Below, in pieces: positions 38,954 through 49,928 of a DNA stretch of 64,000 nucleotides. A program made the position numbers and the translations under genes. The notes beneath the pieces were generated by a model. That model had not been told where the DNA came from, did not search any database, and saw only the letters and a list, made by a program, of their open reading frames with translations. The DNA is from Curtobacterium sp. PhB115. GTDB taxonomy: Bacteria > Actinomycetota > Actinomycetes > Actinomycetales > Microbacteriaceae. The stretch covers positions 62,001-126,000 of the forward strand of contig NZ_RJKR01000005.1 of the NCBI RefSeq assembly GCF_003752025.1, written 5' to 3'. How positions within the stretch are numbered: the stretch's first letter is position 1; every line of letters begins with the position of its first letter.

Positions 38954-39000
38954 CTCGGTCGGGCTGACAGGATTTGAACCTGCGACCCCTTGACCCCCAG
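38954..39000. repeat. attL: 47-bp direct repeat, displaced tRNA-Pro 3' end
   Basis: This 47-bp segment is identical to 49882-49928 and covers the tRNA-Pro sequence from the anticodon loop to the 3' end. It differs from the right copy immediately outside the repeat. Only the 3' part of a tRNA is present here, so it is not a functional tRNA gene. It marks the left boundary of the integrated element. Confidence 0.95.
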
Positions 39001-39141
39001 GCATGCCGGTCCTGTACGCCAGTTTCCGCGGACGTCCACCGCTGACGCTACTTTTCCCAGATCAGAGGCCACACTGCGTCCACAAGCGTCCGTGCCTGTC
39101 CAGTGGGCTCCAGAGAAGCTTTTCGGGGCTGGTTGGCGTAG

Positions 39142-40308
39142 CTACTGGCGTACGGAATCGAGCGCCGCGTCGAGTGCGTCCATCGCCGCGCGCTGCACTT
39201 CGGGGGCCACATGGCCGTACACGTCGCCGGTGATCGCGATCGACGAATGGCCGAGCACGTCCGATACGGCAGTGAGCGGCACCCCGGCGTTAAGCATCCC
39301 GGAGGCGGCCGAGTGACGGAGAGTGTGGACGGTCACCCCGGCGAGACCCGCTTTCTCCGCGGCCACCGACACAGCGCGTAGCGCGTTACGCGGGTCGACT
39401 GGGCCGCCGACCTCGCTCGTGAAGACGAGTCCCGAGTCCTGCCACAGGTCAGGTAGTGCCGCGCGGTCAGCGGCCTGGAGCTCCCGTTGGCGAGTCAAGA
39501 TCGCGCGCACCGGCTCGGACAGCGCAACAGCGCGACGGGATCGCTCTGTCTTCGGCTCCGTGATCACGAGCTTGTCACCGGCGCTCCGGCGATCGTCTCG
39601 CGACAGCGTTCCGCGAACCCGAATAACCCCTCCCGTGTCGTCGACGTCGCTCCAGTGGAGCGCGAGGGCCTCCCCACGGCGTAGGCCTGTTCGCGCTAGG
39701 AAGGCCACGAGCGGGGCGAAGCGTGACCCCTTCGTAGCGTCGAGCAGCGCCAGCACCTCCGCGGGGCTCAGCGATCGCGCTTCCTTCCGCTCGACGCCGG
39801 GACGCGCGACGCTCAGCGCCGGGTTTCGAGCGAGGAGGCCGTCTCGGACAGCCGCGTCCAGGAGCGCCCGCAGGATCGTGTAAACCTGCCGAACGGTGGA
39901 GGATGCCTTCCCCTCGGCGCGAAGGTGCATGGTCAGCGCGTCGATATCCGACGGTTTCACGCGATCGAGCGTGAGCGTGCCGAGCGGTCCATTCGCGATG
40001 TGCACCTTCGCGAGCGTCGCGTACGTCGCCTTCGTGGTCTGCTTGCGGTCACTCGCGGCGAGCGTCGTTGCTACCCAGCGGTCCACCCACTCGCTCAGCG
40101 GCACCGTGGCGTCTCGGACCGGCTGCCCGGCATCTACCCGCGCGCGCTTCTCGCGCATCTTCCGTCGCGCCTCGGCCTGCGTCTTGCCGTAGGACGACGC
40201 CCGCTTCTGCTCGCCTGTCTCTGGGTCCTCGTAAGTGAAACGTGCCTCCCAGAGGCCGTCCTTTCGGCGCGCGATCGCGCCCTCACCGTTGCTCCGCCGA
40301 CCGGCCAT
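39142..40308 (-). CDS. int: Tyrosine site-specific integrase of the 11-kb element
   Basis: The 388-residue phage-type integrase has an N-terminal AP2-like arm-binding domain (GLWEARFTYEDPETGEQKR), a SAM-like core-binding domain and a catalytic domain with Arg in RTGLRRGEALAL, HTLRHSAAS, VLGHSSIA and Tyr in ITGDVYGHV. All catalytic residues are present. It lies 142 bp inside attL, reading toward it. The target is the 3' end of tRNA-Pro(GGG). The intergenic space to the right holds the divergent start of the early genes. Confidence 0.95.
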   Translation of the reverse strand: MAGRRSNGEGAIARRKDGLWEARFTYEDPETGEQKRASSYGKTQAEARRKMREKRARVDAGQPVRDATVPLSEWVDRWVATTLAASDRKQTTKATYATLAKVHIANGPLGTLTLDRVKPSDIDALTMHLRAEGKASSTVRQVYTILRALLDAAVRDGLLARNPALSVARPGVERKEARSLSPAEVLALLDATKGSRFAPLVAFLARTGLRRGEALALHWSDVDDTGGVIRVRGTLSRDDRRSAGDKLVITEPKTERSRRAVALSEPVRAILTRQRELQAADRAALPDLWQDSGLVFTSEVGGPVDPRNALRAVSVAAEKAGLAGVTVHTLRHSAASGMLNAGVPLTAVSDVLGHSSIAITGDVYGHVAPEVQRAAMDALDAALDSVRQ

Positions 40309-40432
40309 GCAGCCTCCTGCCCCTCAAAATGTCAAGGGGTCATAACTTATACGACTGAGCAGCTTTCCGCTCCTGGCCCCCTTCTCTCCTGTCCCAGTCC
40401 GCCGCCGTCCGCGGCCGTCCAGAGAGAAGCCC

Positions 40433-40609
40433 ATGCACACCGCCACTCCCCTCCTCCTCACGCCAGCGCAGGTCGCGGCCGAGCTCGGCGTCGGCCGCTC
40501 GACCGTCTACGAGCTCTTCGCGTCCGGCGAGCTGCGCTCGGTCAAGATCGGGTCCGCTCGTCGGGTGCGGAGCGCCGACCTGCGCGCGTACGTCGAAGGG
40601 CTGTCGTGA
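40433..40609 (+). CDS. Excisionase-like helix-turn-helix protein
   Basis: The 58-residue protein has a MerR/excisionase-type winged HTH: LLLTPAQVAAELGVGRSTVY then GELRSVKIGSARRVRSADLR and AYVEG. This is the standard DNA-binding domain, excisionase family, seen beside integrases. It diverges from int by 124 bp and may act as excisionase, repressor or both. Its stop overlaps the GTG start of the next gene. Confidence 0.88.
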   Translation: MHTATPLLLTPAQVAAELGVGRSTVYELFASGELRSVKIGSARRVRSADLRAYVEGLS

Positions 40610-41004
40610 TCGACGCCGGGGTGCCAAGTGGCGTCAGTGCCCCTCTCTCCTGTTCTCCCCCAAAGAGCTCTTCTCTCTCCACCACAGTTACAGAGGTAGA
40701 GGGGTCTGACGTCACTCGGCACCCCGCGCCGCCGGAGGCCCCGAGTCGAGCCGCCGAGCTCCGCGCCATCCGCGCCGAGGACCGCGCCGCCCGCATTGCG
40801 ACCGCGGAGGAGTGGCTTTCGGGATTGGAGGCTGACGGCGAATTCACCGGGGCCATCCCGGCGACCGCCCTCTTCGAGCTCGCGGAAGACGACCTCGGCG
40901 ACGAGATCGCGGGCCGGACAACCTTCTACGCGATCGCCGATCGCATCCTCGGCCCGCGTGTGCGCATCCGCGGCGTGCGTACCTACCGGATCGGGCCGCA
41001 GTGA
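40606..41004 (+). CDS. Hypothetical element protein, coupled to the excisionase-like gene
   Basis: The 132-residue protein starts at GTG overlapping the previous stop (GTGA). The first 40 residues are Ser/Pro-rich and probably disordered. The rest is helical and charged (RAAELRAIRAEDRAARIATA) and ends GRTTFYAIADRILG and VRTYRIGPQ, suggesting a small DNA-binding helix-turn-helix. No family is recognised. The GTGA overlap at its end couples it to the zinc-ribbon gene. Confidence 0.7.
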   Translation: MIDAGVPSGVSAPLSCSPPKSSSLSTTVTEVEGSDVTRHPAPPEAPSRAAELRAIRAEDRAARIATAEEWLSGLEADGEFTGAIPATALFELAEDDLGDEIAGRTTFYAIADRILGPRVRIRGVRTYRIGPQ

Positions 41005-41231
41005 CTCCCGAGGACCGCGTCCGCGCCGCCGCCGCGCGCTTCGACCAGGACCCCGACGACCCGGACGCCATCGCCGCTTCCGCCCTCCGGGCTCTCGCCC
41101 GCCGCCAGGCTCGGGCCGGGAAGACGTGCGCCTCGTGCGACGAGCGGAAGCCGCTCTCGGCGTTCGGGTCTGACGCCCAGAAGGCGGACGGCCTGACGAC
41201 GCGGTGCCGATCCTGCCGACGTCGCGTGTAA
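41001..41231 (+). CDS. Small zinc-ribbon protein
   Basis: The 76-residue protein begins with GTG overlapping the preceding stop. Its C-terminal half has CASCDERKPLSAFGSD and CRSC, a four-cysteine zinc ribbon common in short actinophage proteins. The N-terminal half is an Ala/Arg-rich helix. It belongs to the early operon of the element. Its function is unknown. Confidence 0.78.
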   Translation: MTPEDRVRAAAARFDQDPDDPDAIAASALRALARRQARAGKTCASCDERKPLSAFGSDAQKADGLTTRCRSCRRRV

Positions 41232-49079: not shown

Positions 49080-49194
49080 CAGCGCCTCCCCGCGTCTGCG
49101 CGTTAATGGATTGACGCGAAGGTACCAGAGCTAGCGGCGCTTGCGGCACGCGCAGCTGGGCGCGCGATCCGGGCAACCGGTGCACTCTTCTCGG

Positions 49195-49815
49195 ATGCGC
49201 ACTCCTTCCTGCTCTTCGCTTCCACCCGTCGACGACGTGGTCGGCCGCTTCCGCTCCGGTCACCAGCTCTCCGGTCGCCCCGCATCGCTCGAAGAGTGGC
49301 GGATCACGACGGGTGACCCCGAGGTCGCCGTCAAGGTCTACGACCTCTTCGGCGCCCACGAGCCGCAGGACTGGGAGACGAAGGGCGAGGACTCGTTCGA
49401 GGTCTTCACCGCTGTTCCCGAGGTCGAGATCATCCTCGCCGACGCGAAGGCGCTCCGTCAGCGCATGGTGCTCTGGAGCCGCCCGGGCAAGCTCGTGATC
49501 GACTCCGACGGCGGCGAGGAGCTCGTAGACGACACCCCCGCACCGTTCCGAGGTCCGGAGCCGTTGATCGATCTGACCTTCGGCCTCGCAGCAGCTCCGG
49601 AGCTCGGTCGATTCGTTCTGAGGTCGCACTCGTGGAGCTGGGCCACCGATCTCGCTCGGAACGGAACCGGCGAACAGCTTGCAGCCGCTCCCACACCCGT
49701 GCGCGCAAGTCTCGCCCTGGAGAAGGTCTCCTTCATCGCGAAGAACGGCCCGCGTGCCGGGCAACTTGTGGCGTACTCGAAGCCGCGGCTCGCTCTTCGA
49801 GGCGCACTGGCGTAG
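49195..49815 (+). CDS. Gp3-type recombination directionality factor-like protein
   Basis: The 206-residue protein reads VVGRFRSGHQLSGRPASLEE, WRITTGDPEVAVKVYDLFGA, DWETKGEDSFEVFT, ALRQRMVLWSRPGKLV, DLTFGLAAAPELGRF and HSWSWATDL. This is the pattern of actinophage proteins related to phiC31 Gp3, which drives serine integrases toward excision. Here the integrase is a tyrosine type. It is the last gene before attR and ends at a strong terminator. A role outside recombination is possible for this family. Confidence 0.72.
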   Translation: MRTPSCSSLPPVDDVVGRFRSGHQLSGRPASLEEWRITTGDPEVAVKVYDLFGAHEPQDWETKGEDSFEVFTAVPEVEIILADAKALRQRMVLWSRPGKLVIDSDGGEELVDDTPAPFRGPEPLIDLTFGLAAAPELGRFVLRSHSWSWATDLARNGTGEQLAAAPTPVRASLALEKVSFIAKNGPRAGQLVAYSKPRLALRGALA

Positions 49816-49834
49816 AAACTGGCGTAGACGCAGG

Positions 49835-49869
49835 AGAGGCCGCATCCGAGGAATTCGGATGCGGCCTCT
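49835..49869 (+). terminator. Strong intrinsic terminator at the element's right end
   Basis: AGAGGCCGCATCCGA pairs perfectly over 15 bp with its complement around a 5-nt loop, 19 bp after the Gp3-like stop and 12 bp before attR. It should stop readthrough in both directions, including from the tRNA. Confidence 0.85.
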
Positions 49870-49881
49870 GATCTGGACTTT

Positions 49882-49928
49882 CTCGGTCGGGCTGACAGGA
49901 TTTGAACCTGCGACCCCTTGACCCCCAG
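49882..49928. repeat. attR: 47-bp direct repeat within tRNA-Pro
   Basis: Identical to 38954-39000 over 47 bp. This copy is part of the intact tRNA, so the element brought in a 3' end that restores the gene. The 10.9-kb distance between repeats is the size of the element. Confidence 0.95.

What the first reader, a model, noticed from the sequence alone, without database searches (positions are those of the whole stretch)
38954..49928. Compact 11-kb tRNA-Pro element: possible actinobacterial phage satellite
A perfect 47-bp direct repeat from tRNA-Pro bounds int, an excisionase-like gene, early zinc-ribbon genes, HNH, terS, a tape measure, an RHH regulator and near-attR cargo. No large terminase, portal, protease, capsid, tail tube, minor tail or lysis gene is present. 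Satellites such as PICIs are known to carry int, xis and their own TerS and to borrow particles. This one also carries a tape measure protein, which would be a new way to redirect or resize helper tails. The main alternative is a prophage that lost its structural genes.
Basis: partly seen in the sequence, partly recalled or inferred. Interest (0 to 1): 0.85.

Follow-up and report, generated by a model that had tools for sequence, protein, structure and literature searches.

The report
Phage satellite carrying a tail ruler
An 11-kb mobile element in a Curtobacterium chromosome looks like a phage parasite that keeps a phage packaging site, a packaging protein and its own tail-length ruler but no shell genes, and a close relative in a second Curtobacterium genome suggests it is a living lineage and not a decayed virus.

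Summary
A perfect 47-bp repeat of the tRNA-Pro 3' end bounds an element of about 10.9 kb (38954-49931) in a Curtobacterium genome; two relatives show the empty site. Three things were missed: a phage-type cos site between HNH and terS, a tail assembly chaperone (G part only) directly before the tape measure gene, and a Gp3-like directionality factor near attR.

A second Curtobacterium genome (G064) has the same compact backbone (83-89% DNA identity) and the same absences, but another integrase, site and defence cargo. Main shared genes are under purifying selection (dN/dS 0.04-0.27). A third, distant element (G430) has p193, the cos core and another terS, but no tape measure. The phage-derived genes are collinear with SpecialK-like phages, so the element arose from such a phage by deletion.

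Best reading: a cos-type phage satellite, not a canonical PICI, probably packaged by SpecialK-like phages and perhaps building chimeric tails. Satellite-encoded TMP plus TAC was demonstrated in Vibrio PLEs in 2026, so the principle is not new; the lineage, the siphophage setting and the frameshift-less chaperone are. Nothing was tested at the bench.

The parts
38954..39003 (.). attL-side direct repeat, copy of tRNA-Pro 3' end
   Evidence: 50 nt at 98% identity to 49882-49931, first 47 nt identical
39142..40308 (-). tyrosine integrase, 388 aa
   Evidence: PF00589 5.5e-26; phrog_1 7e-77
40433..40609 (+). excisionase-like HTH_17 protein, 58 aa
   Evidence: PF12728 1e-14; phrog_66 excisionase/regulator 1.5e-10; weaker phrog_1702 repressor 9e-4
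40687..41004 (+). 105-aa protein, no family
   Evidence: no Pfam or PHROG match
41001..41231 (+). zinc-ribbon-like protein (zn76), related to endonuclease VII-type phage proteins
   Evidence: phrog_1035 4.5e-8; 95% aa identical in G064; homologues lie upstream of HNH in SpecialK-type phages
41395..41655 (+). zinc-finger-like protein (zn86)
   Evidence: weak phrog_8643 (DNA polymerase/primase, first 46 of 179 positions, 6.5e-5) and phrog_8660 (HNH, 9e-5); 76% aa identity to G064
41702..42283 (+). p193, marker protein of this satellite lineage, function unknown
   Evidence: no family; at E 1e-5 found only in own, G064 (89%) and G430 (41%) in the samples searched; model mostly helical, low confidence
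42280..42519 (+). 79-aa protein following p193
   Evidence: 87% identical in G064 over 76 aa
42567..43130 (-). cargo slot, 187-aa protein, function unknown
   Evidence: no match in G064, where the slot holds a TIR-TM defence protein; sub-cutoff GvpU similarity
43145..43432 (+). 95-aa protein, no family
43545..43784 (+). small HNH endonuclease next to the cos site
   Evidence: phrog_333 4e-24; 69-71% DNA identity to the right genome ends of Curtobacterium phages
43827..43840 (+). cos core CGAACCGGCATAGC
   Evidence: aligns with the joined termini of SpecialK, TforTroy and Cen1621; only place in the 64-kb window, 0.005 expected in 200 base shuffles
43900..44385 (+). terS, terminase small subunit (ORF can extend to GTG 43849)
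   Evidence: PF25673 Terminase_7 1.2e-34; dN/dS 0.11 against G064
44382..44855 (-). conserved membrane/coiled protein, 157 aa
   Evidence: 95% aa identity and dN/dS 0.035 against G064; no confident family, weak Rz-like spanin and phage membrane protein matches (0.005, 0.026)
44937..45215 (+). tail assembly chaperone, G part only, no frameshift extension
   Evidence: phrog_10551 5e-5; most named best structural matches are TACs, E 0.02 or weaker; no slippery heptamer found
45219..47564 (+). tail tape measure protein, 781 aa
   Evidence: phrog_58 3.8e-69; 48% identity over full length to SpecialK TMP; dN/dS 0.27 against G064
47641..47829 (-). small RHH-like regulator, 62 aa
   Evidence: weak NikA/TacA models; 93.5% aa identity and dN/dS 0.07 against G064
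47901..48044 (+). 47-aa protein
   Evidence: 89% identical in G064
48053..48262 (+). 69-aa protein
   Evidence: phrog_24480 0.0035; first 25 aa match G064
48219..49079 (-). cargo protein, 286 aa, Cys-pair motifs seen by eye, no family
   Evidence: no match in Pfam, PHROGs, PADLOC or NCBIfam
49195..49815 (+). Gp3-like recombination directionality factor
   Evidence: PF18897 8.3e-11; 49% identity to SpecialK gene 29
49882..49931 (.). attR-side direct repeat within tRNA-Pro
49885..49960 (-). tRNA-Pro(ggg), integration target, intact
   Evidence: ARAGORN

Best explanation
This is an integrated, cos-type phage satellite of Curtobacterium. Its ancestor was a SpecialK-like siphophage that lost its head, terL, tail-tube, tail-tip and lysis genes. 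The element is inserted in tRNA-Pro (shown by comparison), carries its own tyrosine integrase, and is expected to excise with its HTH protein (inferred). It carries a phage-type cos site between HNH and terS (shown), so its DNA can plausibly be cut and packaged by a helper's large terminase together with its own TerS (inferred). It lacks a capsid gene and a recognisable capsid-resizing gene, so it may fill full-size helper heads as a concatemer (inferred, weak: three units are 32.8 kb against 40.0 kb for SpecialK). The satellite's G-type chaperone holds its own tape measure, and this pair replaces the helper's in an otherwise helper-made tail, giving chimeric tails and taking tail parts from the helper (inferred by analogy with PLEs). 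Cargo near terS differs between members and belongs to defence families in the two relatives (shown by homology).
For: Second compact copy with the same junctions terS-membrane protein-TAC-TMP and the same absences in G064. Shared genes are intact with dN/dS 0.106 (terS), 0.035 (membrane protein), 0.273 (TMP), 0.167 (p193), 0.069 (RHH). Integrase, site and cargo differ while the backbone stays: serine recombinase at a Thiamine_BP gene and TIR-TM cargo (1.3e-44) in G064. A cos core is in both, and also upstream of an unrelated terS in G430; in whole genomes the CAT form occurs once in own and once in G430, both inside the element. The layout zn76-HNH-cos-terS equals that of phages, but in phages terL follows: 18 of 19 IMG/VR terS loci and 10 of 10 readable cos-terS loci. 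Empty site in G049 and G054. TMP+TAC in PLEs: tmp is needed for efficient transduction and TMP enters chimeric tails (PMC12987554, section 8).
Against: Only two genomes carry the tape-measure form among 66 Curtobacterium, and one is a metagenome-assembled genome. All phage-derived genes are collinear with a SpecialK-like phage, as a decayed prophage would be. No clear replication gene was found. No TerL of SpecialK type is in either genome, so no such helper is resident and the helper is hypothetical. The chaperone lacks the T extension that siphophage tail assembly is thought to need (recalled), so the tail role could be inhibition. Chaperone sequences diverge strongly (31% identity between the two elements, dN/dS 0.55 on a poor alignment). 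The G064 cos core has CAG for CAT, and G157, a SpecialK-like prophage genome, has no match to the core pattern. Nothing was tested at the bench.
Confidence: 0.66

Rival explanations
1. A prophage remnant: a SpecialK-like prophage lost its structural genes and survives only for its cargo; the second copy is a relative of the same remnant and neither moves.
For: Gene order is collinear with SpecialK-like phages, ending with a Gp3-like factor as in SpecialK. No SpecialK-type TerL is resident. G048 shows that a truncated terL match after terS occurs in this genus.
Against: Two elements with the same junctions sit at different sites with unrelated integrases and different cargo. Shared genes are intact under purifying selection, including TMP, which has no obvious use in a dead remnant. 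Empty sites exist in two relatives.
Confidence: 0.17
2. A satellite whose TMP and G-only chaperone are mainly a weapon: they bind up or poison the helper's tail assembly and are not built into satellite particles.
For: The frameshift extension and slippery site are missing in both elements, so the satellite chaperone may not recruit tail tube in the usual way (recalled model). Tail assembly is a known target of satellite defences (PMC12987554, sections 6 and 8 read; PMC11364771, start of abstract).
Against: TMP keeps near phage length and similarity at both ends to phage TMPs; a decoy would not need this. A satellite still needs tails to spread.
Confidence: 0.12
3. A miniature autonomous prophage whose structural genes are too divergent to recognise.
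For: A phage record of 16 kb with a related TMP exists in Arthrobacter (MooKitty, 15,972 bp).
Against: About 11 kb; the ORFs longer than 200 aa kept as genes are int, TMP, the 286-aa cargo and the Gp3-like factor, which leaves little room for terL, portal and capsid.
Confidence: 0.02

Closest known systems
PLE satellites of Vibrio cholerae (PLE11, PLE1, PLE4; Mathur et al. 2026, PMC12987554)
   Same: Encode their own TMP and TAC, take most tail parts from the helper, carry anti-phage genes; TMP is needed for efficient transduction and enters chimeric tails (section 8 read).
   Different: Contractile-tailed lytic helper ICP1; some PLEs carry BhuB. No homology was tested here. This element has terS, HNH and a cos site, a siphophage-type TMP and a G-only chaperone.
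cos-type SaPIs / PICIs with TerS (e.g. SaPIbov5; PMC8569155, search listing only)
   Same: int, cos site or TerS, no terL of their own (features partly recalled).
   Different: No clear pri-rep or stl/str-like regulators here, no capsid-redirecting gene recognised, plus TMP and TAC; no direct sequence comparison was made.
capsid-forming PICIs (cf-PICIs)
   Same: Integrated satellites with HNH and packaging genes; some sampled by Mathur et al. carry putative tmp genes (Extended Data Fig. 10 legend).
   Different: cf-PICIs encode capsid, portal, protease and terL (as described in a passage of PMC10690885); this element has none.
PICMIs of Vibrionaceae (PMC10803314)
   Same: Small, no capsid-remodelling gene, defence function; packaged as concatemers (passages).
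   Different: PICMI115 is 6.1 kb; its authors found no terS homologue and no cos or pac site in its helper; a TMP is not mentioned in the passages read.
Mulch/Flayer satellites of Streptomyces (PMC10690885)
   Same: Satellites of actinobacterial siphophages.
   Different: They encode capsid, portal and both terminase subunits; MiniFlayer has a tail fibre gene; a tape measure is not mentioned in the passages read.
SpecialK-like Curtobacterium phages (PQ868958 and relatives)
   Same: Same type of HNH-cos-terS, TAC, TMP and Gp3-like gene; 48% TMP and about 53% terS identity.
   Different: Complete 40-kb phages with head, tail, lysis and replication genes and a serine integrase.

Membership tests
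PICI (SaPI-like) | Integrase and excision gene at an att site | tested here: met
   int, HTH_17/xis-like gene, perfect 47-bp att repeat, empty sites in two genomes
PICI (SaPI-like) | Divergent stl/str-type regulators | tested here: not met
   no repressor pair by Pfam or PHROGs; the HTH_17 protein has a weak repressor match (phrog_1702, 9e-4) and there is a 62-aa RHH-like gene far from int
PICI (SaPI-like) | pri/rep replication module | tested here: inconclusive
   no helicase or rep match in 19 ORFs; only the 86-aa zn86 has a weak partial match to a DNA polymerase/primase family (phrog_8643, 6.5e-5); p193 and the 105-aa protein are unknown
PICI (SaPI-like) | Own TerS or cos/pac site, no terL and no capsid genes | tested here: met
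PICI (SaPI-like) | Induced and packaged by a helper phage | not testable with these tools
   needs an infection experiment
PLE | Satellite-encoded TMP and TAC without most other tail genes | tested here: met
   the TAC assignment rests on position, a weak family match and fold
PLE | Homologous PLE backbone and ICP1-type contractile helper | not tested
   no PLE sequences were compared; TMP and terS relate to actinophages
cf-PICI | Own capsid, portal, protease and terL | tested here: not met
   none found
Phage satellite (general) | Mobile element lacking a complete particle gene set but keeping packaging functions, conserved as a lineage | tested here: met
   two Curtobacterium members plus G430 relative
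Phage satellite (general) | Helper dependence demonstrated | not testable with these tools
   no helper known; SpecialK-like phages are the candidate from cos, HNH, terS and TMP similarity
Decayed prophage | Frameshifts, stops or relaxed selection | tested here: not met
   nine compared genes intact in own and G064; dN/dS at most 0.41 for eight of nine, 0.55 for TAC on a poor alignment

The most novel reading that the evidence does not exclude
Curtobacterium satellites independently evolved tail piracy of the PLE kind, here for a non-contractile siphophage. They bring their own tape measure together with a chaperone that has lost its programmed frameshift, and so assemble chimeric tails while starving the helper of tail parts, with cos and TerS routing their DNA into helper heads.
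Probability: 0.4. Interest if true: 0.75.

Novelty: new variant of a known kind. Interest (0 to 1): 0.6.

Why it matters
According to Mathur et al. 2026, no other satellite had been reported to encode a tape measure, and PLEs are the first family known to build chimeric tails; the authors suspect a wider trend (PMC12987554, sections 8 and 9). An apparently unrelated actinobacterial lineage with the same gene pair would support that trend and extend it to siphophages. The two elements keep the G-type chaperone but not its frameshift product, which makes a question testable: why siphophages need both G and the longer product, and whether G plus tape measure alone can steer or block tail assembly. 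Such elements would also escape surveys that require capsid and TerL genes, as the 2023 Curtobacterium survey did for the regions it analysed further (PMC9862828, passages).

Tried and rejected
Rejected: canonical PICI (no stl/str pair, no clear pri-rep); cf-PICI (no capsid genes); autonomous mini-phage (little room). Large tail shortening: TMP 781 and 756 aa against 806 aa in SpecialK and 779 aa in L043. By the published yardstick (95 aa for 10-15 nm) the 25-aa difference to SpecialK would be about 3-4 nm.

Led nowhere: p193 in phages (none) and IMG/VR (none); the two-row terS alignment in genome contigs found only G064 again, with only two peptide patterns used, and found none in IMG/VR; the backbone against plasmids gave one 66-bp match. 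The p193 model was of low confidence and was not searched. The TAC model had no meaningful PDB match. G430's TerS has no phage relative by tblastn; the DNA around its cos core matches phage ends only at E 0.04. The Antarctic Pseudomonas satellite AH14b, which encodes a tail assembly protein I, was looked at in passages (PMC4936722); the tape measure named there belongs to the helper AH14a.

Rows dropped before counts: p193 HMM matches at E 3.7e-4 to 0.009 in 9 of 398 family genomes, and two such matches in the 66-genome run, were treated as chance without further study. Of 12 IMG/VR TMP loci I examined 6, all with head or tail structural genes; the other 6 were not examined. Of 30 flank loci I examined 7. 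G014's TMP (44%) was compared only in its short locus, without neighbour typing. G334's TMP locus has weak protease, scaffold and stopper matches but no SpecialK-type terL in 20 kb. L077 is the one IMG/VR terS locus of 19 without detected terL; it has a portal match. Of 120 IMG/VR stretches with the cos core, 104 gave no match to the element or SpecialK proteins used and are probably chance or other phages.

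
Full report
THE ELEMENT. A perfect 47-bp repeat (50 nt at 98%) at 38954 and 49882 comes from the 3' end of tRNA-Pro(ggg); of six genome-wide matches to the site, the other four are 73-83% identical. In other Curtobacterium genomes the tRNA or its right flank matches in 64 of 66 genomes, in part of them only over the tRNA. I examined 7 of the 30 flank loci fetched. In G049 and G054 a sequence 84-85% identical to the window's left flank runs straight into the tRNA, which is the empty site. 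The other five have other left flanks or only a short match. The unit is therefore about 10.93 kb.

GENES. Order: int(-), xis-like, 105 aa, two zinc proteins, p193, 79 aa, cargo(-), 95 aa, HNH, cos, terS, membrane protein(-), chaperone, TMP, RHH-like(-), two small proteins, 286-aa cargo(-), Gp3-like factor. PHROGs labels the terS family "minor tail protein" (phrog_226), but Pfam Terminase_7 (1.2e-34) and its position before terL in phages show that it is TerS.

PHAGE ORIGIN. TMP is 48% identical over its full length to Curtobacterium phages such as SpecialK, terS about 53%, the Gp3-like factor 49%. HNH and flanking DNA match the right ends of these phage genomes. In SpecialK the order from the right end through the genome ends is HNH, cos, terS, terL, head genes, tube, chaperone, TMP, tail tip, lysis, then the directionality factor gene 29. 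The element keeps this order and lacks everything between terS and the chaperone and between TMP and the Gp3-like gene. A phage ancestor with deletions is the simplest origin.

THE COS SITE. Joining the printed ends of SpecialK, TforTroy and Cen1621 gives ...CGGCAT/AGC..., and the element has CGAACCGGCATAGC at 43827-43840, about 60 nt before the terS ATG. This string occurs once in the 64-kb window against 0.005 expected in base shuffles. Across all of G000 the CAT form occurs only there; G064 has CGAAGCGGCAGAGC upstream of terS; G430 has CGAAGCGGCATAGC once, about 270 nt upstream of its different terS. With the looser pattern other forms also occur (two more places in G000, two more in G430, and places in G011 and G057; none in G031, G021, G048 or G157, whose prophage is SpecialK-like), and the reversed control pattern gives 0-2 per strand, so only the position and the CAT form carry weight. 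Of these, 11 have this terS downstream on the same strand, 7 of them within 400 bp and the rest up to 3.2 kb; 10 of the 11 have terL after it, and the eleventh stretch ends too early.

OTHER MEMBERS. In 66 Curtobacterium genomes, TMP at E 1e-40 is found in own, G064 and, at 44% and partly, G014. G064 carries the same compact backbone: zinc proteins, p193, 79 aa, then terS, membrane protein, chaperone, TMP, RHH (83-89% DNA identity in five blocks). It has a large serine recombinase in place of the tyrosine integrase and sits in a Thiamine_BP gene of which host halves flank it; the element brings a full copy. Size from these halves is about 10.6 kb. Its cargo before terS is TIR-TM (PADLOC 1.3e-44); tblastn finds no homologue of the window's int, xis, HNH, cargo or Gp3-like gene in it. 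A third element in another genus of the family, G430, about 10.8 kb, has the same kind of recombinase and site, p193 (41%), a PHROG-type terminase small subunit (2e-6), the cos core and a PDC-S32 defence gene (8.6e-76). It has no homologue of this TMP by tblastn, and one 154-aa ORF has only a chance-level TMP match of 0.05. p193 is rare: 2 of 398 family genomes at E 1e-5, 2 of 66 Curtobacterium, 1 of 12 in G430's genus, which was G430, and 1 of 396 order genomes, which was own. The samples overlap and G064 was not in the family sample.

SELECTION. Between own and G064 (NG86) dN/dS is 0.106 terS, 0.035 membrane protein, 0.273 TMP, 0.167 p193, 0.069 RHH, 0.256 zn76, 0.405 zn86, 0.317 p47 and 0.545 chaperone, the last on a poor alignment (31% identity). 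The TMP run used an upstream start (771 aa); the start that matches own gives 756 aa. Intact genes under constraint, with different integrase and cargo, indicate a mobile lineage.

CONTROLS ON TERL. Of 19 IMG/VR loci with related terS, 18 have terL adjacent; L077 does not by this test but has a portal match. Of the three other Curtobacterium terS loci, G031 and G021 have terL, portal, capsid and tail genes, and G048 has a truncated terL match. SpecialK terL finds 5 of 66 Curtobacterium genomes at 29-39% identity, not own and not G064. In 396 family genomes, TMP at E 1e-80 is found in own, G157 (SpecialK-like prophage, terL 78.5%) and G334 (prophage-like). Full relatives of the phage-derived genes exist, but so does a second compact form, so the condition is not fulfilled.

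CHAPERONE. SpecialK encodes a G protein and, with a slippery GGGAAAC near its end, a longer product. Both satellites keep only a G-sized ORF (92 and 91 aa) with an Arg-rich end. In the window no X XXY YYZ heptamer was found; in G064 the one such string lies after the stop codon. Identity rests on position, phrog_10551 (5e-5 own, 1.2e-7 G064) and a fold model (pLDDT 78.5) most of whose named best viral matches are tail assembly chaperones, though none reaches E 0.001.

MECHANISM. Shown by sequence: site-specific insertion, packaging site and TerS, absence of particle genes, conservation. Inferred: excision, helper packaging, concatemer filling, chimeric tails. The model follows PLEs, where satellite TMP replaces the helper's, tmp deletion cuts transduction by 96-99.9%, and tails differ in length (PMC12987554, sections 6, 8 and 9 read). 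I put the chance that this is a mobile satellite at about 0.8 and that its TMP is built into tails at about 0.4-0.5.

PRINT RECORD. Nine full-text searches were made. Among the listings I saw, satellite plus tape measure terms led to Mathur et al. 2026 as the only demonstrated case; its authors note putative tmp genes in other Vibrio satellites and some cf-PICIs. No title or abstract start that I saw in these listings describes this Curtobacterium element. The Curtobacterium prophage survey took only regions with MCP and TerL further (PMC9862828, passages). Most subscription papers and all bioRxiv preprints are outside the library.

Noticed in passing
36464-38551 (+): A 695-aa ORF just left of the element has no match in Pfam, PHROGs or NCBIfam; by eye it resembles a transposase-like protein.
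   Followed up: partly
38875-38921: A perfect 23-nt inverted repeat with a 1-nt loop directly left of the attL repeat, terminator-like; a similar hairpin stands at the same place before tRNA-Pro in G049.
   Followed up: partly
50077-50184: A 9-nt tandem array (ACCCGGACA type, 9 register copies) just beyond tRNA-Pro on the host side.
   Followed up: no
L013:4319-4642 and L017:1606-1917: Both serine-recombinase elements carry a full copy of the thiamine-binding protein gene they interrupt, beside the truncated host half, so the gene seems to be replaced on insertion.
   Followed up: partly
L013:3907-4182: A 91-aa Cas2-like protein (PF09827 0.01; phrog_1090 4e-22) near the right end of the G064 element.
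   Followed up: no
42567-43130 (-): The cargo protein before HNH has a sub-cutoff match to gas vesicle accessory protein GvpU (1.5e-6, 28.5 bits against cutoff 70).
   Followed up: no
L077:70-1793: IMG/VR contig with Terminase_7-type terS followed by a portal match but no TerL detected with the SpecialK protein.
   Followed up: no
L038:9544-10409: Curtobacterium G048 prophage locus with terS followed by only an N-terminal terL match (residues 12-149 of 562).
   Followed up: no
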